A program made the position numbers and the translations under genes. From a virus, in the IMG/VR virus record IMGVR_UViG_3300048927_000254, positions 1 to 28,142 of that record: 28,142 nucleotides of DNA. One strand, 5' to 3'. Of this stretch, positions 8,932 through 27,418 are shown piece after piece (position 1 is the stretch's first letter; each line of letters starts with the position of its first letter). The notes under the pieces were generated by a model, which saw only the letters and a program-made list of their open reading frames with translations, was not told the DNA's origin and made no database searches.

Positions 8932-9358
8932 GACACATTTGGTAGGTAGAACATCATCAATCTGACAGTCTGGTTTGAGCGAGATATGAACGGACATGGC
9001 TCCTCACGACTAAGTATGCTTTATCACAACGGTCACTCTACAAGATAATCATCATTGATTATTGTTAGCAGGAAATTCCTGTTAATAGCTGATGTAGCTG
9101 GACACAGCTAAAGAGATGCGATCCTCACGGATGAATTAAAGCTTTTATTCACGATGCCGATAACATAATTTCTACAACAACAACTCGTGGCAAGTCCAGC
9201 ATGCTATGCTATAGCATTAAAGATAAACTTTTCAAAATGTTAGCCTAGCCCTCCATCTTTTTTGGACTGTATTCTGGCGAAATGGTAATAGACTGATGTA
9301 TGAACGAAGTATGGTCTGTTTGGCAAAAATTATATTTTTCTCATAATTGGTGAAAAAA
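8932..9358. other. AT-rich spacer upstream of the metallopeptidase gene, no gene seen
   Basis: No open frame with a ribosome site is visible. The stretch starts just after an inverted repeat at 8916-8931 (AGCTCA, four bases, TGAGCT) and contains a 10-bp palindrome TGCTATAGCA at 9207-9216. A possible sigma-70 promoter is TTGGAC at 9262-9267 with TAATAG at 9286-9291 (18-base spacer, preceded by TGG), pointing to the gene at 9359. Base composition is clearly richer in A/T than the phage backbone. Confidence 0.4.
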
Positions 9359-10399
9359 ATGCATACCGAAAAACGTAAAAAATTATATGAGCTTGAATTG
9401 AGTTACACAACAGCACTGAAAGCAGGTTATCCAACAGATGATATTACTTCTAAAATTCAGAATGAGTACAGTACGTTAGTAGATGATTTAAGTAATAAGA
9501 TTGGTAGTTCAGTTTACTCTTTAGTAAAATTAGTACAGCCTATATATCTAACTAAAGAATTCCTCAATTTTTTGCATTCTGTCGATAGTTCATTATTACA
9601 TAATGCTATTTCTGAGGAGCAATTTATCCAATCCCGTCTTGTAGTGGAAAGATTGTTAAAAGTAAATTTAGGGCAAACCCAATGGGTTCACCTAATAAAA
9701 AAGAGTAGAGAGAATGTTGAAGGTTTTTGCGTACCTAATGGAGATGTAGATCATTTTATATTCACCCAAGATGATGAGAATGGAGTTATATCTACAGATC
9801 TTTTGGTTCATGAGATGGGGCATGCTGCTGACTACACTATATCTAGATCTCTTAATAACAATGATCTACTTGTGGGGCATATTTCTTTTTCTGAAGCAGT
9901 GGCATTTTACTGTCAATATAAATATCTATCAGAATATGGAACTGAAGCACAACGAAGAGGAAGTCTTGGTGCTTTCATTTTCACATATCTGTGTATTATA
10001 ACTTTAAGATATTGTTTGAAACACAATTTCTCCCTTAAAGAGTTAAAAGTTGATGTTGCAATTAATGATGATGAATTTAAAGATATAATAGAGTCCTACT
10101 ATCCACGAGGTATTGATGGCAAAAAATTTATATCGAGTGTTTTAATTGAGAGAATATTACCATTTCAAGAGCTTACTAGCTTAGTTTTTTATGAAATAGC
10201 CCCTCGATTCGGAATTTTTCTTGCGATTACTTTTTTAGGTAGGGACTCAGAATACATAAAGAGATTTATCTATAAAAATACTATTAATACAGGTATCGAT
10301 ACCATAATCGATGAGTTGATACCCGATTACCATCAGAATGTCCTTGATTTTGAGAATAATGCCAAAGAATATATCCAGGGTGTCAAAATTGGCATCTGA
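9359..10399 (+). CDS. HEMGH zinc metallopeptidase-like cargo protein
   Basis: A 346-residue protein transcribed against the surrounding late genes. It carries LLVHEMGHAADY with H151, E152 and H155, the zinc-binding and catalytic HExxH motif. SFSEAVAFY supplies a likely third ligand, E179, 24 residues after H155: the gluzincin pattern, reminiscent of M3-type oligopeptidases. No signal peptide or clear membrane anchor is present, so action in the cytoplasm is expected. I chose the ATG at 9359 because GGTGA lies before it; GTG at 9350 or TTG at 9347 are alternatives. Very AT-rich, with its own terminator downstream, it looks like a lysogenic-conversion or defence cargo gene. Substrate and role are unknown. 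Confidence 0.75.
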   Translation: MHTEKRKKLYELELSYTTALKAGYPTDDITSKIQNEYSTLVDDLSNKIGSSVYSLVKLVQPIYLTKEFLNFLHSVDSSLLHNAISEEQFIQSRLVVERLLKVNLGQTQWVHLIKKSRENVEGFCVPNGDVDHFIFTQDDENGVISTDLLVHEMGHAADYTISRSLNNNDLLVGHISFSEAVAFYCQYKYLSEYGTEAQRRGSLGAFIFTYLCIITLRYCLKHNFSLKELKVDVAINDDEFKDIIESYYPRGIDGKKFISSVLIERILPFQELTSLVFYEIAPRFGIFLAITFLGRDSEYIKRFIYKNTINTGIDTIIDELIPDYHQNVLDFENNAKEYIQGVKIGI

Positions 10400-16605: not shown

Positions 16606-16652
16606 ACGTGGACAGCAGGAAAATCAGCAGGCCGCCCGTTAACGTGGCAGTC

Positions 16653-18419
16653 ATGAAAATGACAAACTCAACCATCATCAGCGACCCACGGCGACAGGCG
16701 GCTCTGCTTTACTGGCAGGGGTTTTCTGTCCGTCAGATTGCGGAACTGCTGACCCAAAAAATACCGACGGTGCAGAGCTGGAAAACCCGCGACGCGTGGG
16801 AGAACGCCGCGCCGATTACCCGTGTGGAATCCAGCCTGGAAGCGCGTTTAATTCAGCTCACCACCAAAGACGTCAAAGGGAATGCGGACTATAAGGAAAT
16901 GGAGGCGTTAGGCCGGTTAATGGAACGCCTGGCACGGGTGAACCGCTACAGCCAGAGCGGGAATGAGGTGGATTTAAATCCTAACGTTGCCAACCGTAAC
17001 AAAGGGGAGCGTAAGAAGCCGACAAAGAACTTTTTCAGCGACGAAGCCCTGGAAAAGCTGGAGGATATTTTTCTGGCTCAGTGCTTCCAGTATCAGCGTG
17101 TCTGGTATGACGCGGGGCTTAAGCACCGCATTCGCGACATCCTGAAATCCCGTCAGATTGGCGCAACGTTCTTCTTTGCACGGGAAGCGTTATTGCGCGC
17201 CCTGGCTACCGGTCATAACCAAATTTTTCTGTCAGCCAGTAAAACCCAGGCTTACGTGTTTCGTGAGTACATCATTCAGTTTGCCCGCCAGGTTGATGTC
17301 GAGCTGACCGGCGACCCGATTGTGATCGGCAACAACGGCGCAAAGCTGATTTTCTTAGGCACCAACTCCAACACCGCCCAAAGCCATAACGGCGACCTGT
17401 ACGTGGACGAAATCTTTTGGATACCCAACTTCCAGAAGCTGCGCAAGGTTGCCAGTGGCATGGCGTCCCAGGAACATCTGCGCACCACCTATTTCTCCAC
17501 GCCGTCGGCGCTGACGCACGGTGCGTACCCGTTCTGGTCAGGCGAACTGTTCAACAAGGGGCGGGAAAATCCGAACGACAGGATTGAACTGGATATCGGC
17601 CATCACGCCCTGGCAAAGGGTCGGCTTTGTGAGGATGGACAGTGGCGGCAAATCGTCACCATTGAGGATGCGTTAGCCGGTGGCTGCAACCTGTTCAACA
17701 TCGACACGCTGAAACAGGAAAACAGCGCCGAGGATTTCCGCAACCTGTTCATGTGTGAGTTTGTTGACGATCAGGCATCGGTGTTCCCGTTCGCCGAACT
17801 GCAACGCTGCATGGTGGAAAGCACGGAGGAATGGCAGGATTTCAGCCCGTTCGCCGTGCGTCCGTTTGGCTATCGCGCCGTCTGGATTGGTTACGACCCG
17901 TCGCACACCGGCGACAGCGCAGGCTGCGCCGTCGTGGCTCCGCCGCTGGTGGACGGGGGGAAATTCCGCGTACTGGAACGCCACCAGTGGAAAGGTATGG
18001 ATTTTTCCGCCCAGGCCAAAAGCATTGAGGAACTGACAAAACGCTACTGCGTGGAATACATCGGCGTGGACGCCACCGGCATCGGCCAGGGTGTTTTCCA
18101 GCTTGTCCGGCAGTTCTTCCCCGCCGCGATGGAAATCCGCTACAGCCCGGAAACGAAAACAAAAATGGTCCTGAAAGCGAAAGACACCATCACGTCAGGC
18201 CGCCTGGAATACGACACCAACCACAAAGATATCACCTCGTCATTCATGGCGATCCGCAAAACCATGACCGCCAGCGGCAGCCGTTCCACCTACGAGGCAA
18301 GCCGCAGCGAGGAGGCCAGTCACGCCGATGTCGCCTGGGCAATCATGCACGCCCTGCTTAACGAACCGCTGACCGCCGCGAACGGCGGCCAAAGCCCTAA
18401 CATCCTGGAGTTTTATTAA
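16653..18419 (+). CDS. P: Terminase large subunit gpP (ATPase and nuclease)
   Basis: 588 residues (P2 gpP 590). The motor that cuts at cos and pumps DNA into the procapsid. The N-terminal helix-turn-helix-like part (DPRRQAALLYWQGFSVRQIA) is followed by the ATPase with the variant Walker A KSRQIGAT (residues 165-172) and Walker B DLYVDE (D252, E253). The C-terminal RNase H-like nuclease has acidic residues D415 (GYDPSHTGD), D473 (GVDATGIG) and D559 (HADVAW). No good ribosome site fixes the start: ATG at 16653 and at 16659 are both plausible. It is divergent from O and followed one base later by Q. Confidence 0.94.
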   Translation: MKMTNSTIISDPRRQAALLYWQGFSVRQIAELLTQKIPTVQSWKTRDAWENAAPITRVESSLEARLIQLTTKDVKGNADYKEMEALGRLMERLARVNRYSQSGNEVDLNPNVANRNKGERKKPTKNFFSDEALEKLEDIFLAQCFQYQRVWYDAGLKHRIRDILKSRQIGATFFFAREALLRALATGHNQIFLSASKTQAYVFREYIIQFARQVDVELTGDPIVIGNNGAKLIFLGTNSNTAQSHNGDLYVDEIFWIPNFQKLRKVASGMASQEHLRTTYFSTPSALTHGAYPFWSGELFNKGRENPNDRIELDIGHHALAKGRLCEDGQWRQIVTIEDALAGGCNLFNIDTLKQENSAEDFRNLFMCEFVDDQASVFPFAELQRCMVESTEEWQDFSPFAVRPFGYRAVWIGYDPSHTGDSAGCAVVAPPLVDGGKFRVLERHQWKGMDFSAQAKSIEELTKRYCVEYIGVDATGIGQGVFQLVRQFFPAAMEIRYSPETKTKMVLKAKDTITSGRLEYDTNHKDITSSFMAIRKTMTASGSRSTYEASRSEEASHADVAWAIMHALLNEPLTAANGGQSPNILEFY

Positions 18420-18420
18420 T

Positions 18421-19452
18421 ATGAGTAAGCGCAAATTCCGCAAGGCGGCATCAACTACCGTCACAGCAACCGCACAGCCGACAGGCGGCGCGGAGGCGTT
18501 CAGCTTTGGCGACCCGACGCCGGTATTAGACCGCCGTGAAATCCTGGATTACATCGAATGCACGGGGAATGGCCAGTGGTATGAGCCGCCGGTCAGCTTT
18601 GACGGCCTGGCCCGTACGCTGCGGGCAGCGGTTCACCACAGTTCGTCGCTGTATGTGAAACGTAATATTCTGGCCTCGACCTTTGTCCCGCATCCGCTGC
18701 TGTCACAGCAGGAGTTCAGCCGCTTTGCACTGGATTATCTGGTATTCGGGAATGCGTTCTTAGAAGTGATCCGCAACCAGCTCGGCGACGCCGTGGTGAT
18801 GAAAACGGTGCCCGCCAAATATGCGCGGCGCGGCGTAGAGCCAGATACTTACTGGTTTGTGCAGCAATGGAAAGAGGCGCATCAGTTCGAACCGGGAAGC
18901 GTATTTCATCTGATTGAACCGGACATTAATCAGGAGCTGTACGGCCTGCCGGAATATCTCAGCGCCCTGAATTCTGCCTGGCTCAACGAGGCTGCCACGC
19001 TGTTCCGCCGCAAGTACTACCAGAACGGCGCACACGCTGGTTACATTCTGTATATGACGGACGCAGCGCAAAGCAGCTCGGACATCGACCAAATGCGTAA
19101 AGCGATGCGCGACACCAAAGGGCTGGGGAATTTCCGGAATCTGTTCATGTACGCACCCAACGGCAAACCGGACGGGATCAAGATTTTGCCGCTGAGCGAA
19201 GTTGCGACGAAAGACGATTTCTTTAATATCAAGAAAGCCAGCCAGAACGATTTGTTGTGCGCGCACCGCGTTCCACCGCAGATGATGGGGATTATTCCAG
19301 AGAACAGCGGCGGGTTCGGGGATTCGGTTAAGGCGTCTCAGGTATTTGTGCGTAATGAGCTAACGCCTTTGCAGGAGCGGTTTAAGGAGCTGAATGCGTG
19401 GTTTAGGGAAGAGGTGATTAGATTTACTTCTTATGAGCTCACATCTGACTAG
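18421..19452 (+). CDS. Q: Portal protein gpQ
   Basis: A 343-residue protein (P2 gpQ 344) that forms the dodecameric portal through which DNA enters and leaves. Blocks such as LDYLVFGNAFLEVIRNQLGD, YYQNGAHAGYILYMTDAAQ and NDLLCAHRVPPQMMGIIPEN are strongly P2-like. The final residues (EEVIRFTSYELTSD) and their AT-rich codons depart from the backbone style, suggesting that the exchange junction for the downstream cargo lies at the very 3' end. It is co-transcribed with P. Confidence 0.95.
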   Translation: MSKRKFRKAASTTVTATAQPTGGAEAFSFGDPTPVLDRREILDYIECTGNGQWYEPPVSFDGLARTLRAAVHHSSSLYVKRNILASTFVPHPLLSQQEFSRFALDYLVFGNAFLEVIRNQLGDAVVMKTVPAKYARRGVEPDTYWFVQQWKEAHQFEPGSVFHLIEPDINQELYGLPEYLSALNSAWLNEAATLFRRKYYQNGAHAGYILYMTDAAQSSSDIDQMRKAMRDTKGLGNFRNLFMYAPNGKPDGIKILPLSEVATKDDFFNIKKASQNDLLCAHRVPPQMMGIIPENSGGFGDSVKASQVFVRNELTPLQERFKELNAWFREEVIRFTSYELTSD

Positions 19453-19496: not shown

Positions 19497-20561
19497 TTAG
19501 TATTCCCATGTAGTTTCTTCAACATTAAATTCAATACCCGCGCTGAGTCCTTTTATATATAAATTGAATTCATCATTGATTAAACCTTCCTCATCTATTT
19601 CAAAGGATAAATCTAATTCGACCGAAAATTCTTTTTCTTCCTCTTCTTCGTTACGGGTAGATTCAAAAGTATAAAGAACTCCATCTTCTTTGTCATAATG
19701 GCCAGTTTCTGTATTAGGACCAGTTGCTTCTACGCGGAATTGCACAGTTACATCAAAAGTAATTTGACAGCTTTCATCATCTAAATGAATTATTTTTGGT
19801 TCAAAATCCTCGATCTCAATAACTTCAAAACTATCTACCTCAGAGTCATCCCACGTAGAGACGTTATAGCCTTCCGCGGTTTGTAGTTTTTCTTTTATCC
19901 TCTGGATAATATCATCTTTTTTGCGTTCTAAAAATTGTTCGATGAATTGAGCTCTTTGGTTATCATGCTTATTGTAAATGTCGAGCAATGCACTCAATGT
20001 TTCTACATTTACAAAGCCATCATTAGTTTCACAGAAACTTTTGTGGTCTGGGTCTTCTGAAACCACATAAACCTTCTCATTAACTCTTAAAGCTGAACGT
20101 ATTGCTAAAAGAGTGAATGCATCTCGAAACTCGTTAGGTTTCCTCGCACTAAATGGGCTGGTTTGATCAAAGTACATATCAATAACTTCATTAAGGTTTA
20201 CTTTTGCCATATCTACTACGGTAGCTTTAGATGTCTCAAGAAAATCACTAAATGCGGTTAGGGCTTTTGTCTCAATGTCATCTTCATTGATTTCGACGAA
20301 AAGATTTCTTATATTGTCATCATCATACTCTTTAAGAACAGCCGCTTTGCGTCTGAAATTCTTAATTCCTTTTAACGCTTCTTTGATCTGCTCAATAATT
20401 TTTCGTTTAACTTCTTTCACAACAATTGTGCTTGTAATATGCCTGAACTCACTGGTTTCACACAACTCTTCAAATGATTTTATCGTTCTTGAATTGAAAT
20501 CTAGATTTGCCTTTACAAAAAATTCAGTGTCGATAAAAACATTACGAGTAATTAGCGGCAT
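19497..20561 (-). CDS. PIN-domain (DUF4935-like) protein, candidate defence ribonuclease
   Basis: 354 residues. Residues 1-200 resemble a PIN nuclease: NVFIDTEFF supplies D11, VVKEV E50, EFRDAF D147, and VVSEDPD D170/D172, a spacing and set of acidic residues typical of PIN metal sites. Residues about 205-235 are a charged helical linker; residues about 240-354 form an acidic beta-rich domain with NEEEEEKEF. PIN proteins usually cut RNA; DUF4935-type members are often annotated in accessory islands, but I know of no fixed role. AAGGAG lies seven bases before the ATG. It is very AT-rich compared with Q. There is no antitoxin-like partner gene adjacent, so a classical VapBC pair is unlikely. 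Confidence 0.7.
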   Translation of the reverse strand: MPLITRNVFIDTEFFVKANLDFNSRTIKSFEELCETSEFRHITSTIVVKEVKRKIIEQIKEALKGIKNFRRKAAVLKEYDDDNIRNLFVEINEDDIETKALTAFSDFLETSKATVVDMAKVNLNEVIDMYFDQTSPFSARKPNEFRDAFTLLAIRSALRVNEKVYVVSEDPDHKSFCETNDGFVNVETLSALLDIYNKHDNQRAQFIEQFLERKKDDIIQRIKEKLQTAEGYNVSTWDDSEVDSFEVIEIEDFEPKIIHLDDESCQITFDVTVQFRVEATGPNTETGHYDKEDGVLYTFESTRNEEEEEKEFSVELDLSFEIDEEGLINDEFNLYIKGLSAGIEFNVEETTWEY

Positions 20562-21231: not shown

Positions 21232-24200
21232 ATGGCCGACTCATATGATTTGACACAGCTGGATACTCATACATTTGAACACTTAGTGAATTTCTTAGCA
21301 TTGAAAGTACTAGGGAATGGGGTTACAGGTTTTGCTGCCGGTGCTGATGGCGGGAGGGATGGCTACCTTGTGGGTAAAGCATGCTACCCAACACCAAAAG
21401 AAAACTGGGAAGGTACATGGTATCTCCAGTCAAAGTTTCATAAACCAAACCTGTCTAAAAATCCTCAAACTTGGCTATTACAACAGATCAAAGATGAAAT
21501 AGCTGAGTTTGAAAATTCAGAAGATAGAAATTTACCTGATAATTGGATTATTGCTACTAATATTGAACCTACAGGAAAACCACAAACGGGTTCATTTGAT
21601 AAAATCCATGATTTAGTAAAAAAGAAATTCGGAGATAAAATAAAAATTGATATATGGGGAGGTAGACGAATCCTCGACTTTCTTGCACATGATGAAGATG
21701 CCTCAAGATACTATGGCCATTTCATAACCCCAGGTCATGTAATTTCAGCTCTTTATGATAATTTAAAAAATAAAAGCAGAGAAATAAAATACATAATAGA
21801 TCATTTAATTATTAGTCAATTTAATGAGCTTATTTATACCAAACTTGAACAAGCAGGCTCAGGAAGCGATCAACGCCCCAAGATTTACGAGCTTTATGAA
21901 GACTTACCAGTAAGTTTTGACGGAGTTTTAGATAATCCATTTATTATGAAATCTTTAGTCTCCTCCTCATGCAATGTTCATAAAGCATCAGCATGGGAAG
22001 AGTTTGGAGACGGATGGAGAGTCTGGTCAAAAATACCATCAAGAGCAAGAACTATTCTTTTGAAAGGTGGCCCAGGACAAGGAAAGTCGACTGCTGGTCA
22101 GTATTTTTCACAGATTCAGAAGGCTGCTTTTATCCTTTCAGGAAAAGGTCCTAAAGTTACACCACAAATAAAGTCATTGGCAACAGAGTTAAAAAAACAC
22201 GCAGAATTGAAAGGTTATTGGCCTAGCCTGCCTCGAGTGCCGGTATTTATTGAGTTAAAAGATTATGCAAATTGGTATAATACTAAATTGGAAAGTGATT
22301 CTAAAAGCATAACCGCGTTTATATGTGATAAAATATACATCAGAACAACTAAAAAAATGACCACGGAAATGTTTGAGGAATCGCTAAGGCTGTTTTCATG
22401 GTTTATTAATTTTGACGGTCTGGATGAAGTGCCAAATGATTTGAAAGATACAGTTGCTGAAGAGATTATTTTATTTACCAACGAAGTATGTCCTTATTTG
22501 GATGCTGATGTTTTAATTCTTTGCACAACACGACCGCAGGGTTATTCTGGTCAATTCGAAAATTTAGATGCTGCAGTAGTTGTTCTCGATCCTTTACCGC
22601 CTGAAATAGCTTTATCGTGCGCATCATCTGTAGTTACATTTAGCAGAGATAAAGACGAAGGTTTACAATTTGTTGAAGTTTTAAAATCAGCAATGGAATC
22701 TGAGCAGGTTCGTGAATTGATGACAACCCCACTTCAGTCTCATATAATGGCTGTAGTTGTTCGTGATGGTGGTCGGCCACCGGAAAGAAGATGGGAGCTG
22801 TTTAATAACTTTTATCATGTTATGAAGAGGAGAGAAAGTTTAAAAAACTTCCCTGATAAAAAAATATCCCAACTTCTTAGAGAAAATGACGTTTTGTTAA
22901 AGTCTATTCATGACCGTCTGGGTGTTTCACTTCATACTAAGGCTGAAAAAAGCAATGGTGCTGAAGCCACTTTGGATAAAACTGAGTTCAAAATACTAGC
23001 TGAAAAAACCACAAAATTATTACTAGACGGCGATATTAATGCGGTGGTGAAAACTCTAATGGAGGCAACGACAGATAGATTAGTCTTTGTTAATACACCT
23101 GAAAGTAGCTCTACAGTAAGATTTGATATTAGACAGTTACAAGAGTTTTTTGCTGCTGAGTTTATTTATTCTGCAGTTACTTCCAAAGAGTTACATGACC
23201 GCCTTACGCTAATAGGTGCGGACTCTCATTGGAGGGAGGTTGTTCACTTTATACTGAGTGCTTTAACTTATAATAAAAGAGTCGCTGAGTTGGCGATCAC
23301 GATTGATATTTTATCGAATTTAGATAGTCACCCAAATCATAAAATTAAGCAGTTTAAGAAAAGAAGCGCTACAGGAGCACTTCTAGCCTTACGCTTGCTT
23401 ACGGAAGGTGTTTTGGAACAAGATCGACAGGTAAGGCTACAATTCGTAAAAGTATTTCAGCCATTGTGGGGGACACTTGACTATCAAATAATTTACAGAG
23501 TTTTGGCGGTAAATCATAATCAATCGAAAAGTTGGCTAGTTTCTGTAATGTCAGAAGCTGTTATGGAACTTGACTATAGTGAGAACATCACTAGTGGTTA
23601 CCTTTTAACCTTTATGCTTACAGAACAACATCCTCGTTTTGAAGAAGTTAAAAATAAAATCATTACAGCGCCAAAGTACTATCTAAATACGATACTCGCA
23701 ATGAGTGCTATTAAAAATTACTACTTGCCTGGAATAAATGAGTCGAAAGCTCAAAAATGGTTCATTTGTGAGCTGGTTAATATACTTATGTCTTCAGATT
23801 CACTCGATATTGTTACTTGTAATAATGCTTTAAATGTTTTGAGGCAAGAAAAGAGTTCTCTAATCCAATATTTAGATAGTGAAGGGGGTTCATCGAATGA
23901 ATTAGACTTGTTACTTTATTTAGTTAGAATTAATGATAAGCCAATAAAAACTAAAAATCCCCAAGAAAACAAAATTTCTTATTGTTTTGGTGACATAGTT
24001 TATCATGATCACTCTTGGGTCACAGATACGATACCTAGTGGTTTGTCAGTTTTAAAAACGAGCGACGTTAAGAATTCAATTTTGCTAGAGATGATCAAGC
24101 TGATTATTATTTTTTCTAAGAAAAGAGATATGGATTCATTACTTTTGTTTATTGAAAAATTTGAAAGTGTTGGGTTAAACTCATTAGGGATTCCATCAGA

Positions 24201-25218
24201 TTTGAAAGCCCTAATGCCAATTGATTTTGAAATAACCAAAGTCGAAAAATGCATTTCAACTCTAAAGGGAATGAATGACTCTGACCTTTCTGATATTTTA
24301 ACGCACCATAAAATTAAAGAGTACAAATTTGAAAGGCCTGTTAAACAGGCAAGGATTAATGACAAGCCTTTTAACAAAATATCTTGGCGGAAATTGTGTT
24401 GCGATCAGCCATTCTTAGCTATTCAGTTATGGAGCACTCCATTTCATAATATGGATCGTGAATTTGAATATAACTCATTGGATGCATTAAATCCGATATT
24501 AGAGATATTTGAAGAAAGTCCAAACCTGACTTCATGTTGTTTTTTGATGTGGGGAGAGGTTTTTAAAGCTTTCCCAGAAAGGGAAAGCTTAATTCGAAAA
24601 AAACTTATAAATAACTCTATATCTAAAAGAGATTTTAGTGGCCACTTCCACAGGAAAACTACGCCCTTTAAAATAGACTTAGAAAATGAGTTGGAATTTA
24701 TAATACTGTTTTCTCATTCCTTACATACGATTCAATCACTTTATCTAGATCATGCTGTTGGTATGATACATCAAGAGAAAATTGATTATAATGAAACTGT
24801 CCTTCAGGAATTTGGGCTGAGTTCAGAAATACTTTTGCATATATGTAATGATGCATCAAATTCCAATTTAGTACGTATCGCAGCATTAAGTTGTTATCTT
24901 GGACAAACCTTCGAAGATAAAAATCTCATAATAGATAATTTTTTCAAAACTGGTCTTAATAAAACCTTTTGCTCACTGTTGAACAAAGGGGATAATGAGA
25001 ATCTTATATCTGGTATATATGGGCTTTTTCTTGATATAAAACATCTGGATGATGACGTAATGGAATTCATCGGAGAGGTTACTTACATTTGCAAAGAGCA
25101 TTTTAGGATAAAATTTGTTTTGCAAAGTTTATATTCTAGATGGAGAGAAAGATCATCATCACCTGTACAAAAAAGTAATAAAATAGATGAGTGGTTGGAC
25201 TATACGTATAATATTTAA
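21232..25218 (+). CDS. Mrr-like nuclease-NACHT NTPase fusion, candidate phage sensor
   Basis: 1328 residues. Residues 10-75 carry a PD-(D/E)XK nuclease signature: E16 (TFEHLV), D43 (GADGGRDGY) and Q66-S-K68 (WYLQSKFH), the QxK form common in Mrr-like enzymes. The NACHT NTPase follows: Walker A GGPGQGKST (279-287), Walker B FINFDGLDE with D395, D398 and E399 (the DGLDE form is diagnostic of NACHT), and a sensor arginine R434 in LILCTTRPQG. After a helical region with DIRQLQEFFAAEF come about 650 residues of helical, non-repetitive-looking sequence, as expected for a ligand-sensing arm. Bacterial proteins built this way (AVAST, bNACHT) detect a phage protein, oligomerise, and degrade DNA or kill the cell. 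AAGGA precedes the ATG; it is AT-rich, a single gene, with its own terminator. The exact family is not established. Confidence 0.85.
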   Translation: MADSYDLTQLDTHTFEHLVNFLALKVLGNGVTGFAAGADGGRDGYLVGKACYPTPKENWEGTWYLQSKFHKPNLSKNPQTWLLQQIKDEIAEFENSEDRNLPDNWIIATNIEPTGKPQTGSFDKIHDLVKKKFGDKIKIDIWGGRRILDFLAHDEDASRYYGHFITPGHVISALYDNLKNKSREIKYIIDHLIISQFNELIYTKLEQAGSGSDQRPKIYELYEDLPVSFDGVLDNPFIMKSLVSSSCNVHKASAWEEFGDGWRVWSKIPSRARTILLKGGPGQGKSTAGQYFSQIQKAAFILSGKGPKVTPQIKSLATELKKHAELKGYWPSLPRVPVFIELKDYANWYNTKLESDSKSITAFICDKIYIRTTKKMTTEMFEESLRLFSWFINFDGLDEVPNDLKDTVAEEIILFTNEVCPYLDADVLILCTTRPQGYSGQFENLDAAVVVLDPLPPEIALSCASSVVTFSRDKDEGLQFVEVLKSAMESEQVRELMTTPLQSHIMAVVVRDGGRPPERRWELFNNFYHVMKRRESLKNFPDKKISQLLRENDVLLKSIHDRLGVSLHTKAEKSNGAEATLDKTEFKILAEKTTKLLLDGDINAVVKTLMEATTDRLVFVNTPESSSTVRFDIRQLQEFFAAEFIYSAVTSKELHDRLTLIGADSHWREVVHFILSALTYNKRVAELAITIDILSNLDSHPNHKIKQFKKRSATGALLALRLLTEGVLEQDRQVRLQFVKVFQPLWGTLDYQIIYRVLAVNHNQSKSWLVSVMSEAVMELDYSENITSGYLLTFMLTEQHPRFEEVKNKIITAPKYYLNTILAMSAIKNYYLPGINESKAQKWFICELVNILMSSDSLDIVTCNNALNVLRQEKSSLIQYLDSEGGSSNELDLLLYLVRINDKPIKTKNPQENKISYCFGDIVYHDHSWVTDTIPSGLSVLKTSDVKNSILLEMIKLIIIFSKKRDMDSLLLFIEKFESVGLNSLGIPSDLKALMPIDFEITKVEKCISTLKGMNDSDLSDILTHHKIKEYKFERPVKQARINDKPFNKISWRKLCCDQPFLAIQLWSTPFHNMDREFEYNSLDALNPILEIFEESPNLTSCCFLMWGEVFKAFPERESLIRKKLINNSISKRDFSGHFHRKTTPFKIDLENELEFIILFSHSLHTIQSLYLDHAVGMIHQEKIDYNETVLQEFGLSSEILLHICNDASNSNLVRIAALSCYLGQTFEDKNLIIDNFFKTGLNKTFCSLLNKGDNENLISGIYGLFLDIKHLDDDVMEFIGEVTYICKEHFRIKFVLQSLYSRWRERSSSPVQKSNKIDEWLDYTYNI

Positions 25219-25241
25219 CGTTTGGTTTTAAGGATATAAGA

Positions 25242-25284
25242 AAGAGCTACTTAGGAAAGTTTATATATAAGTGGCTCTTTTTTT
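25242..25284 (+). terminator. Terminator of the NACHT gene
   Basis: AAGAGCTACTTA and TAAGTGGCTCTT form a 12-bp stem (one G-U pair) around a 14-base AT-rich loop, followed by a T-run to 25284. It lies 23 bases after the stop codon, between the converging NACHT and A genes, and may partly serve the A transcript too. Confidence 0.75.
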
Positions 25285-25354: not shown

Positions 25355-27418
25355 TCATAATTCACCTTTAATTTTAGAGTTAATTAACCAAACATTTTTT
25401 GTGCTGATGTTCTGTCTATTATGAATAAAATTTGTTATCGGTAGTATCTCTACAGGCTCATTTGTGTCGTTTATTGTCGTTACAGAGAATTTTTCTTCAT
25501 TTCTCACCGATTGTTCAGGATGTTTCTGCAATATCGATTCCATATTGTTGCCTTTTCCACAGTTATTGACAGGACTCCGAGGCGCGCCGGAGGCGCTTTT
25601 TGCGGTCAAAACCTCAGAATCAACGGCAGAAGCAACGATGCGCCATTGAGTGGTGCGCGTTTCATATACATGTGATTCGCCGAGGTGGGGCGCGAAAATG
25701 CCCACAACTTTTTTCACTTCTTCATCGTAGGCGTTCAGCTCATTGGCAACGCGACGTGCTACGCGCACCGTCTGATCGTCACGCGGTACATTAGCGCCGC
25801 CCTGGGCAGTCATGTACGCCATAAAGTCACCGGCATCAGCAGCAGCGCGAACGGCTTCAACTTCTTCGTCAAAGGTTTCAGTCAGACTGATGGAACGGAT
25901 GCGGCGGCACTCACGGTATGAACCCATAGTAGGCAGGCCGATGGGATGGAATTGAGGGATACGCCATGTTGCAGCCCAGGCAGTAACAGCAGCAGCGGAA
26001 TCCGTCAGAAGCTCGCCGGTCTCGTGGTCGCGTTCGCCTTCCAGTGCGTAACCGTCGATATTCTTCGCGATGTATTTAGCGATGTAGCCAGCAGCACCGC
26101 CTCGGTTCAGGTGCTTACAGTCAAAGCGGTTCTTTGCTGCGCCGCGCTCGTCACCGTCTTCTTTCATGGCGTATTTGCGCATGATATCGATCACCGACTT
26201 ACGCATGGCAGGCTTGGTGAATAACATCATGTGCCAGTGCGGAGTCGCGTCGTGGTGAGGCTCAACTACGCGCATCCCATAAACTGATAGGCCACTGTCT
26301 TTAAACGCGGTGCGCATTTTGCTCCAGATCCCACAAAGATAACGCTGTGCATCTTTCGGCGTGTAGGCCTCTTTGTCCCAGGCATGATTTCGCTGAACGC
26401 GCTTGTTATCACCTTTACCAACCATGCGGGTCGGGTGAAATTTAGAAGGGGTGGTGATGGTCAGAAACATCCCGACGTCACCATTCGCGGCAGCATATTT
26501 TTCGGTGCCGGCGATAGTGCTCATCAGCTCCATGCGGCGGATTTCAGGGTTTGAAATACTCGCCATGACCTTATCGATCAAACTGATACGCTCGCCGGTT
26601 TCGACATTCTCCAGGTCACGGCTTTTTAGATAGTCCAGATTCGACAGTCGGCGGGAACGAACTTCACGGATAGCCTGCTTACTGGCATAGGGCGACGCGT
26701 CACGGTTAACCTTACCGATGGCGATCAGCAAGGATTCACGCCAGCGGGTACGCTGGCCTTTCAACTGACTTAACCACCAATCGGGATTTACCAGCCGAGA
26801 CATGCTAGCGATGGCAGACGTTGCATCAAGCTTGCCTTTAGTGAATTTTGTCCAATACATAGGGCTGACGTTGAAGGCACGAGACATTCCTGCAATATCA
26901 CGATACAGAGCGCACTGCGTATCAGACTGAAGAAGTACCGCGTAATCTCCACCATGTTCAGCCAAAAGCTGATCGCAACGGTCTTCATAAATGGCCTTCA
27001 ATTGTCCTGCAATATTCTGTGTGAAACGACGTAGCGGTTTGTCGCTCATGCCTGGTAACTGGTGATAAACATCGGCCTCTGAGATGAATTTCATGGTGGC
27101 ATTGATATTCATTGCATGGGCTTTATTAACTGCATCTACACGCGGCAGGATGCTGCGGCCAAGGGTATAAACCAGATATTTATTGGCTGCGTGAATGCCC
27201 TGAGTTTTGAGCAGGTACTTATGGCGGCCAGTGAAAATTTCTTGCAGGTCTTTAGAGAGGTTTTTTACTTTGATTAAAACAGCTTGCCCCTGATCGTATT
27301 CATCACGGGTAAGCGGTCTCGGCCTTTCTTGGGGGACAATTGGGGCTAGGGGTTTATTCCAGGGGAACGCCCAAACATCGGGCGTTTCAGTCTGAGAAGT
27401 AAAGCGATTGTTCTGCAT
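25355..27418 (-). CDS. A: Rolling-circle replication initiator gpA
   Basis: 687 residues (P2 gpA 761). It nicks the origin and stays bound to the 5' end, starting rolling-circle replication. Visible motifs: the HUH metal-binding block PHHDATPHWHMMLF with H394 and H396, and the catalytic tyrosine pair Y445 and Y449 in GYIAKYIAKNIDG, matching P2 Y450/Y454. The likely origin lies within codons around 610. The last 75 or so residues (from GKGNNMESILQKH) are AT-rich, unlike the P2 C-terminus, and look acquired together with the neighbouring cargo. Its ATG overlaps the stop of the 27-codon ORF upstream. Confidence 0.93.
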   Translation of the reverse strand: MQNNRFTSQTETPDVWAFPWNKPLAPIVPQERPRPLTRDEYDQGQAVLIKVKNLSKDLQEIFTGRHKYLLKTQGIHAANKYLVYTLGRSILPRVDAVNKAHAMNINATMKFISEADVYHQLPGMSDKPLRRFTQNIAGQLKAIYEDRCDQLLAEHGGDYAVLLQSDTQCALYRDIAGMSRAFNVSPMYWTKFTKGKLDATSAIASMSRLVNPDWWLSQLKGQRTRWRESLLIAIGKVNRDASPYASKQAIREVRSRRLSNLDYLKSRDLENVETGERISLIDKVMASISNPEIRRMELMSTIAGTEKYAAANGDVGMFLTITTPSKFHPTRMVGKGDNKRVQRNHAWDKEAYTPKDAQRYLCGIWSKMRTAFKDSGLSVYGMRVVEPHHDATPHWHMMLFTKPAMRKSVIDIMRKYAMKEDGDERGAAKNRFDCKHLNRGGAAGYIAKYIAKNIDGYALEGERDHETGELLTDSAAAVTAWAATWRIPQFHPIGLPTMGSYRECRRIRSISLTETFDEEVEAVRAAADAGDFMAYMTAQGGANVPRDDQTVRVARRVANELNAYDEEVKKVVGIFAPHLGESHVYETRTTQWRIVASAVDSEVLTAKSASGAPRSPVNNCGKGNNMESILQKHPEQSVRNEEKFSVTTINDTNEPVEILPITNFIHNRQNISTKNVWLINSKIKGEL
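25558..25590 (-). other. Likely phage replication origin (gpA nick region) inside gene A
   Basis: The minus strand reads CCGGCGCGCCTCGGAGTCCT, then GTCAATAACTGTG. In P2 the origin lies within gene A, and I recall its core as GGCGCGCCTCGGAGTCCTGT. A direct repeat of GCGCCTC follows from the adjoining GCGCCTCCGG. The codons spell GAPRSPVNNCG, a stretch kept across P2-like gpA proteins, probably because the DNA is constrained. Confidence 0.6.

What the first reader, a model, noticed from the sequence alone, without database searches (positions are those of the whole stretch)
21232..25218. Prophage-borne Mrr-NACHT fusion: candidate single-gene phage sensor and effector
Seen: nuclease residues E16, D43 and Q66-x-K68, NACHT Walker A at 279-287, DGLDE Walker B at 395-399, sensor R434, and about 650 further residues. 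Known: STAND/NACHT proteins with nuclease domains (AVAST, bNACHT) are anti-phage sensors, and the tin/old locus of P2-like prophages is a hotspot for such genes. Inferred: this is an exclusion system that protects the lysogen. The sensing arm showed me no clear TPR or other repeat, so it may represent an undescribed clade.
Basis: partly seen in the sequence, partly recalled or inferred. Interest (0 to 1): 0.85.

Follow-up and report, generated by a model that had tools for sequence, protein, structure and literature searches.

The report
Prophage NLR-like nuclease phage-defence gene
A P2-type prophage carries, in its known defence-gene slot, a single intact gene for a bacterial relative of animal NLR immune receptors with a DNA-cutting domain at the front and a fast-changing helical arm at the back, probably a suicide alarm that protects the host cell from other phages.

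Summary
It lies between the P2 portal gene (gpQ) and replication gene (gpA), the old/tin slot. An N-terminal Mrr-like PD-(D/E)XK nuclease is supported by profile comparison (94%, 1e-7) and by the catalytic pattern across 83 relatives. The middle is a true NACHT/NLR module: its best solved-structure matches are NLRC4, NOD2 and NLRP3 (Z about 22-24), well above Avs3/Avs4. The arm (about 700-1328) is a predicted helical, HEAT/ARM-like solenoid. Full-length relatives (48-56%) occupy the same gpQ-gpA slot in three other phages or prophages and in E. coli, including a decayed prophage with the gene intact. Others sit beside Shango, Lit or a Jet/Mks-like operon. The arm diverges about twice as fast as the front. 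Most likely it is a one-gene NLR-type abortive-infection sensor and DNase; trigger and activity are untested. It is a new member of the bNACHT nuclease kind. A clade-specific arm and C-terminal signature (WRERSxxPV) set this group apart; I found no description of it. Interest is moderate.

The parts
21232..25218 (+). NLR-like gene, 1328 aa: Mrr-like nuclease, NACHT, helical arm
   Evidence: Single intact ORF; full-length relatives at about 38-56% identity
21232..21726 (+). Residues 1-165: Mrr-like PD-(D/E)XK nuclease domain (E16, D39, D43, Q66, K68)
   Evidence: hhalign to an Mrr_cat alignment 94.3%, E 9.7e-8, control 0.8%; alpha-beta-beta-beta-alpha-beta order in the model
22027..22551 (+). 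Residues 266-440: NACHT nucleotide-binding core (Walker A 279-287, Walker B 395-399, sensor R434)
   Evidence: Conservation; Pfam NACHT in 34 of 43 members, best 4e-16; NLRC4/NOD2/NLRP3 fold
22552..23331 (+). Residues 441-700: NACHT helical/winged-helix region with the FxxRxLQEFFAA motif
   Evidence: Profile match to NLRC4 over the same elements; structure
23332..25218 (+). Residues 701-1328: helical solenoid arm, putative sensor; C-terminal signature WRERSxxPV at 1304-1312
   Evidence: AlphaFold2 pLDDT 83, almost all helical; weak HEAT/ARM matches; low conservation; signature confined to the clade
25238..25284 (+). Strong hairpin plus T-run just after the stop codon, likely intrinsic terminator
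   Evidence: -18.5 kcal/mol, z -4.7; the pattern scan missed it because its loop is longer than the scan allows
18421..19452 (+). P2 gpQ portal gene, left border of the slot
   Evidence: phrog_68, 2.7e-166
25355..27418 (-). P2 gpA replication gene, right border of the slot
   Evidence: Pfam Phage_GPA 4.5e-100; phrog_91 8e-257
19497..20561 (-). PIN_12-domain protein, a second and independent cargo gene in the same slot
   Evidence: Pfam PIN_12 1.4e-20; no relative in the other slot-borne loci

Best explanation
It is a one-gene, NLR-type (bNACHT-like) abortive-infection protein carried by a P2-like prophage. At rest the NACHT module holds the protein inactive. The C-terminal helical arm recognises a component or effect of an infecting phage, the NACHT module exchanges nucleotide and oligomerises, and the clustered N-terminal Mrr-like nucleases cut DNA, stopping the infection and probably the cell. 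Shown here: gene integrity, domain make-up, conserved catalytic and nucleotide-binding residues, NLR fold, location in the P2 exclusion slot, recurrence in that slot and in defence islands, and fast divergence of the arm. Inferred: phage sensing by the arm, oligomerisation, DNA cleavage, cell death and protection of the lysogen.
For: Nuclease: hhalign to Mrr_cat 94.3%, E 9.7e-8 with E, D-x3-D and QxK aligned; control arm-versus-Mrr 0.8%; PADLOC PDC-S73 matches 35/43 members and an Aga_REase model 19/43, and the matches inspected fall in the nuclease region; the same domain is fused to nSTAND3 and to ABC-3C CTD12 proteins. NACHT: 34/43 members hit Pfam NACHT; profile to NLRC4 9.7e-7; model 1-735 pLDDT 85.5, best structures NLRC4 Z 24.3, NOD2 22.9, NLRP3 22.7. 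Slot: gpQ and gpA flank it; same slot in L010, L090, L091 and, with only the gpA side present, L093, and in E. coli SC467. In E. coli H2 the prophage lacks most structural genes but the NACHT gene is intact. Other relatives: a Klebsiella plasmid beside Shango SngA/B and Lit; Vreelandella, about 170 bp after a DUF3584/MksE operon; next to an integrase in L092. Arm segments 18-44% identical (C-tail 22-50%) versus 47-75% for nuclease, nucleotide-binding core and WHD parts. GC 32-37% against 50-59% for phage core genes. Analogy: bNACHT25/32 are PD-(D/E)XK-NACHT DNases whose D48A mutant loses protection (PMC12169576); the gpA-gpQ region is a validated hotspot (PMC9122126).
Against: No functional data for any close relative were found. 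The query itself scores below cut-off for Pfam NACHT and has no Mrr_cat hit; the assignment rests on relatives and on profiles. Weak arm similarity to solved structures leaves the sensing mode open. Low GC and rapid divergence are also expected of any horizontally acquired cargo.
Confidence: 0.8

Rival explanations
1. The gene is a defence protein but not a suicide system: the nuclease discriminates and cuts incoming phage DNA only, restriction-like, with NACHT as a DNA-triggered or modification-triggered switch.
For: The nuclease is closest to Mrr type IV restriction catalytic domains; Mrr enzymes can act on modified DNA (general knowledge).
Against: The NACHT fold matches oligomerising NLRs and the analogous bNACHT25/32 degrade plasmid DNA on activation (PMC12169576). 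No DNA-recognition domain was seen besides the catalytic core.
Confidence: 0.12
2. It guards the prophage rather than the host: it is tuned against co-infecting relatives, helper-dependent satellites (P4-like) or superinfecting P2-like phages, and its trigger is a P2-family or satellite protein that the carrying phage itself avoids. (A question of target; it can be true together with the best explanation.)
For: Recurrence in the P2 slot of several phages with a rapidly diverging arm; P2/P4 hotspot systems can act against close relatives (PMC9122126).
Against: Relatives also live on a Klebsiella plasmid and in chromosomes of cyanobacteria and Vreelandella away from the P2 genes searched for, so general phage sensing is likelier.
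Confidence: 0.2
3. The gene is a passenger or decaying cargo with no present function.
For: It is rare: 1 of 395 Enterobacterales species genomes and 3 of 5426 E. coli genomes.
Against: Frame, catalytic and nucleotide-binding residues are intact here and in the close relatives aligned; it is intact in a prophage that has otherwise decayed; it has its own strong terminator-like hairpin.
Confidence: 0.06

Closest known systems
bNACHT25 / bNACHT32 (clade 6 bacterial NACHT proteins; PMC12169576)
   Same: N-terminal PD-(D/E)XK DNase, central NACHT, C-terminal sensing region, single gene
   Different: Clade 6 has an NCH1 domain; no NCH1 match in this protein or in residues 1-735 of 43 relatives. Their sequences could not be fetched for direct comparison.
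Avs (AVAST) proteins, notably Avs4
   Same: STAND ATPase with an N-terminal nuclease (Mrr-like in Avs4, from my own knowledge) and a long helical C-terminal arm
   Different: No PADLOC Avs match. Foldseek puts Avs4 and Avs3 at TM about 0.2 with this model, against 0.42-0.45 for the best NLR matches.
Animal NLRs NLRC4, NOD2, NLRP3
   Same: NACHT core, winged-helix and helical domains; Z 22-24 over about 400-430 residues
   Different: Effector is a nuclease instead of CARD/PYD; the arm is HEAT/ARM-like rather than LRR
P2 old/tin exclusion slot between gpA and gpQ (PMC9122126)
   Same: Same flanking genes and same accessory, low-GC cargo character
   Different: Different gene; that paper lists an NLR category for this hotspot but I could not read its tables to see whether this family is included
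PADLOC candidate PDC-S73 and Argonaute-associated REase proteins
   Same: Similar N-terminal nuclease region
   Different: Matches inspected cover only the nuclease end of those models

Membership tests
NACHT / NLR-like STAND NTPases (bNACHT in the broad sense) | Walker A, DGLDE-type Walker B, sensor Arg and NLR-type winged-helix motif | tested here: met
   Core positions conserved in 82-83 of 83; Pfam NACHT in 34/43 relatives; NLRC4 profile match
NACHT / NLR-like STAND NTPases (bNACHT in the broad sense) | NACHT three-dimensional fold | tested here: met
   Model pLDDT 85.5; NLRC4 Z 24.3, rmsd 4.4 over 432 residues; NOD2 Z 22.9
NACHT / NLR-like STAND NTPases (bNACHT in the broad sense) | Ligand-triggered oligomerisation and phage protection | not testable with these tools
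   Needs experiment
bNACHT clade 6 (bNACHT25/32) | N-terminal PD-(D/E)XK nuclease | tested here: met
   Profile match to Mrr_cat, motif conservation, core order of secondary structure
bNACHT clade 6 (bNACHT25/32) | NCH1 domain (PF22728) after NACHT | tested here: inconclusive
   No NCH1 match in the query (E up to 1) or in residues 1-735 of 43 relatives (E up to 0.01); but no positive control rang, so detection power is unproven
bNACHT clade 6 (bNACHT25/32) | Phylogenetic placement within the clade | not tested
   bNACHT25/32 sequences could not be fetched by protein accession
Avs (AVAST) | Sequence match to Avs models | tested here: not met
   No PADLOC Avs hit at E up to 1
Avs (AVAST) | Closest structural relatives are Avs proteins | tested here: inconclusive
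   Avs4 and Avs3 appear at ranks 40 and 46 with TM about 0.2, below animal NLRs
Avs (AVAST) | Senses phage terminase or portal | not testable with these tools
   Needs experiment
Mrr-like PD-(D/E)XK nucleases | E, D-x3-[DE] and QxK motifs in an alpha-beta-beta-beta-alpha-beta core | tested here: met
   control
Mrr-like PD-(D/E)XK nucleases | DNA cleavage | not testable with these tools
   Needs experiment
P2 gpA-gpQ hotspot cargo | Lies between gpQ and gpA of a P2-like phage | tested here: met
   same in L010, L090, L091 and E. coli SC467

The most novel reading that the evidence does not exclude
A distinct, undescribed clade of nuclease-NACHT receptors (C-terminal WRERSxxPV signature, clade-specific HEAT/ARM-like arm) has become established in P2-like phages, which host an allelic series of sensors at one fixed locus; the arm variants recognise different phage components, perhaps including rival P2- or P4-type elements.
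Probability: 0.35. Interest if true: 0.65.

Novelty: new member of a known kind. Interest (0 to 1): 0.48.

Why it matters
What bacterial NLR sensor arms recognise is mostly unknown. Here the same slot in several phages holds alleles with a conserved effector and switch and an arm only 31-40% identical to this one. Swapping arms between these alleles in a laboratory strain and selecting phage escapers would link arm sequence to trigger. It also adds a nuclease-NLR family that is found on prophages, a plasmid and chromosomes.

Tried and rejected
Single-sequence scans (Pfam, PADLOC, NCBIfam, PHROGs, PDB) gave no significant hit for the query alone; relatives were needed. Single-protein scans of genome contigs and viral contigs found nothing; alignment queries did, and a clade-specific rescan of viral contigs added nothing. 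Profile search of the nuclease alone against PDB sequences gave only chance hits. NCH1 was sought in 295, 10 and 369 genomes without any positive, controls included, so no NCH1 protein was available for comparison. Many NACHT-profile hits in Enterobacteriaceae are short P-loop matches and were discarded. Kibby et al. 2023 and Gao et al. 2022 are not held. A two-gene system with the PIN_12 protein was considered and rejected: no relative of PIN_12 occurs at the other slot-borne loci, and its relative in Enterobacter phage ENT4 lies at another cargo spot. The Lit, Shango and Jet/Mks-like neighbours are taken as separate systems, not partners, since they are not shared between loci.

Full report
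WHAT IS THERE. The window is a whole IMG/VR virus record of 28142 bases from a P2-like phage. PHROGs identify portal gpQ (18421-19452 +), terminase (16608-18419 +), scaffold, capsid and tail fibre genes, and the gpA replication protein (25355-27418 -). Between gpQ and gpA lie a PIN_12-domain gene (19497-20561 -) and the gene in question, 21232-25218 (+), 1328 aa, uninterrupted. GC is 37% and 32% in its two halves against 50-59% for the phage core, and a strong hairpin with a T-run follows the stop codon (-18.5 kcal/mol, z -4.7). The nearest E. coli and phage DNA is only about 73-75% identical over core genes, so the host is not settled.

THE PROTEIN. Library scans with the single sequence give nothing above cut-off. 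Relatives settle it. A Klebsiella variicola plasmid carries a full-length relative (45%), and alignment-driven scans gave 80 loci in genomes and 8 in viral contigs, read as ORFs.

NUCLEASE. An alignment of 36 N-terminal domains compared with 15 Mrr_cat domains (from, aligned) gives 94.3% probability and E 9.7e-8 over 111 columns, with the E, D-x3-D and QxK motifs in register. The same Mrr alignment against the C-terminal arm gives 0.8%. In the AlphaFold2 model the order is helix 12-27, a short strand near 31-32, strands 44-50 and 59-68, helix 78-95, strand 104-109, with D43 at the start of one strand and Q66/K68 at the end of another, as in PD-(D/E)XK enzymes. The domain looks like a portable effector: it matches PADLOC PDC-S73 and Argonaute-associated REase models, and its relatives are fused to nSTAND3 and to ABC-3C CTD12.

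SWITCH. 34 of 43 members score on Pfam NACHT at E 0.01 or better, best 4e-16. A profile of 70 members finds NLRC4 in PDB sequences at 9.7e-7, over the P-loop, the LMxTPL region and the SxQEFxA motif in order. The model of residues 1-735 (pLDDT 85.5) matches NLRC4 (Z 24.3, rmsd 4.4, 432 residues), NOD2 (22.9) and NLRP3 (22.7). Avs4 and Avs3 appear much lower (TM about 0.2).

ARM. Residues 644-1328 model well (pLDDT 83.0, pTM 0.83) as stacked helices with a few short strands. Solved-structure matches are HEAT/ARM proteins but weak (Foldseek E 0.014 or worse, VIA Z 9.0 or less), so this is an arrangement, not a proven relationship. The first ~130 residues of the modelled arm are shared with sister groups (hhalign 90%, E 1.4e-6). 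A profile of the arm built from 11 clade members finds, beyond those, only L014-L016, and the C-terminal WRERSxxPV-type signature appears only in this clade.

EVOLUTION AND CONTEXT. In a tree of 18 sampled sequences, the window and its 11 closest relatives form one group (100/100); the slot-borne ones cluster (one change on the tree, 0 of 500 shuffles as low), though their exclusive grouping is weakly supported (48/82). The gene lies in the same gpQ-gpA slot in Lelliottia (L010) and viral contigs L090 and L091, with gpA adjacent in L093, whose contig begins within the gene. Of 5426 E. coli genomes three carry it: SC467 shows the whole slot; SC487 has gpA adjacent and the record ends just upstream of the gene; H2 has lost most of the prophage structural genes, with a truncated portal, yet keeps the NACHT gene intact. 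The three are 99.9-100% identical to each other and 52% identical to the window protein. Elsewhere it sits beside Lit and Shango SngA/B on the Klebsiella plasmid, about 170 bp after a DUF3584/MksE operon in Vreelandella and beside an integrase in L092. It is rare: 1 of 395 Enterobacterales species genomes. Against the window protein the nuclease, nucleotide-binding core and WHD region are 47-75% identical in eight relatives, and the two main arm segments 18-44%.

MECHANISM. A conserved effector and switch with a diverging arm, in an exclusion slot and in defence islands, is what a sensor-effector defence protein would show. The closest studied analogues, bNACHT25 and bNACHT32, are PD-(D/E)XK-NACHT DNases that degrade DNA when a phage protein activates them, and D48A abolishes protection (PMC12169576). 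I therefore favour trigger recognition by the arm, NACHT opening and oligomerisation, nuclease clustering, DNA cleavage and abortive infection. The domain parts are shown; every step of the sequence of events is inference.

KNOWN VERSUS NEW. The P2 gpA-gpQ region is a described hotspot whose figure legend lists an NLR category (PMC9122126). NCBI already names the E. coli copies 'NACHT domain-containing protein'. So the kind is known. What I did not find described is this clade with its own arm and C-terminal signature. Membership in bNACHT clade 6 is unresolved: no NCH1 match was seen, but no positive control was available, and the clade paper is not held.

Noticed in passing
window 19497-20561 (-): PIN_12-domain protein, GC 34.5%, a second cargo gene beside gpQ. 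A 68% identical relative in Enterobacter phage ENT4 lies not in this slot but at the other cargo spot, between baseplate and tail-completion genes, so this cargo seems to move between two slots of P2-like phages.
   Followed up: partly
window 9347-10399 (+): 350-aa low-GC (32%) ORF of unknown function between baseplate and tail-completion genes, without Pfam or PADLOC match and with only a weak PHROG hit; likely cargo at a second hotspot.
   Followed up: partly
L144 5731-15559 (E. coli H2): P2-like prophage at yegQ-yegR that has lost most structural genes (truncated portal, broken lysis and tail genes) but keeps an intact NACHT gene and gpA.
   Followed up: partly
L100, L101, L103: The same Mrr-like nuclease domain fused to the ABC-3C C-terminal domain CTD12 (L100, L101) and to nSTAND3 (L103) in Enterobacteriaceae genomes: an interchangeable effector.
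   Followed up: partly
L017 1-5823: Four-gene operon with DUF3584 and MksE proteins (Jet/Mks-like) about 170 bp upstream of the Vreelandella relative; no PADLOC match to any of the four.
   Followed up: partly
L012/L013: Two cyanobacteria (Scytonema, Tolypothrix) carry copies nearly identical in the N-terminal half; the Scytonema reading frame ends early, at 1127 aa, although similarity continues beyond.
   Followed up: no
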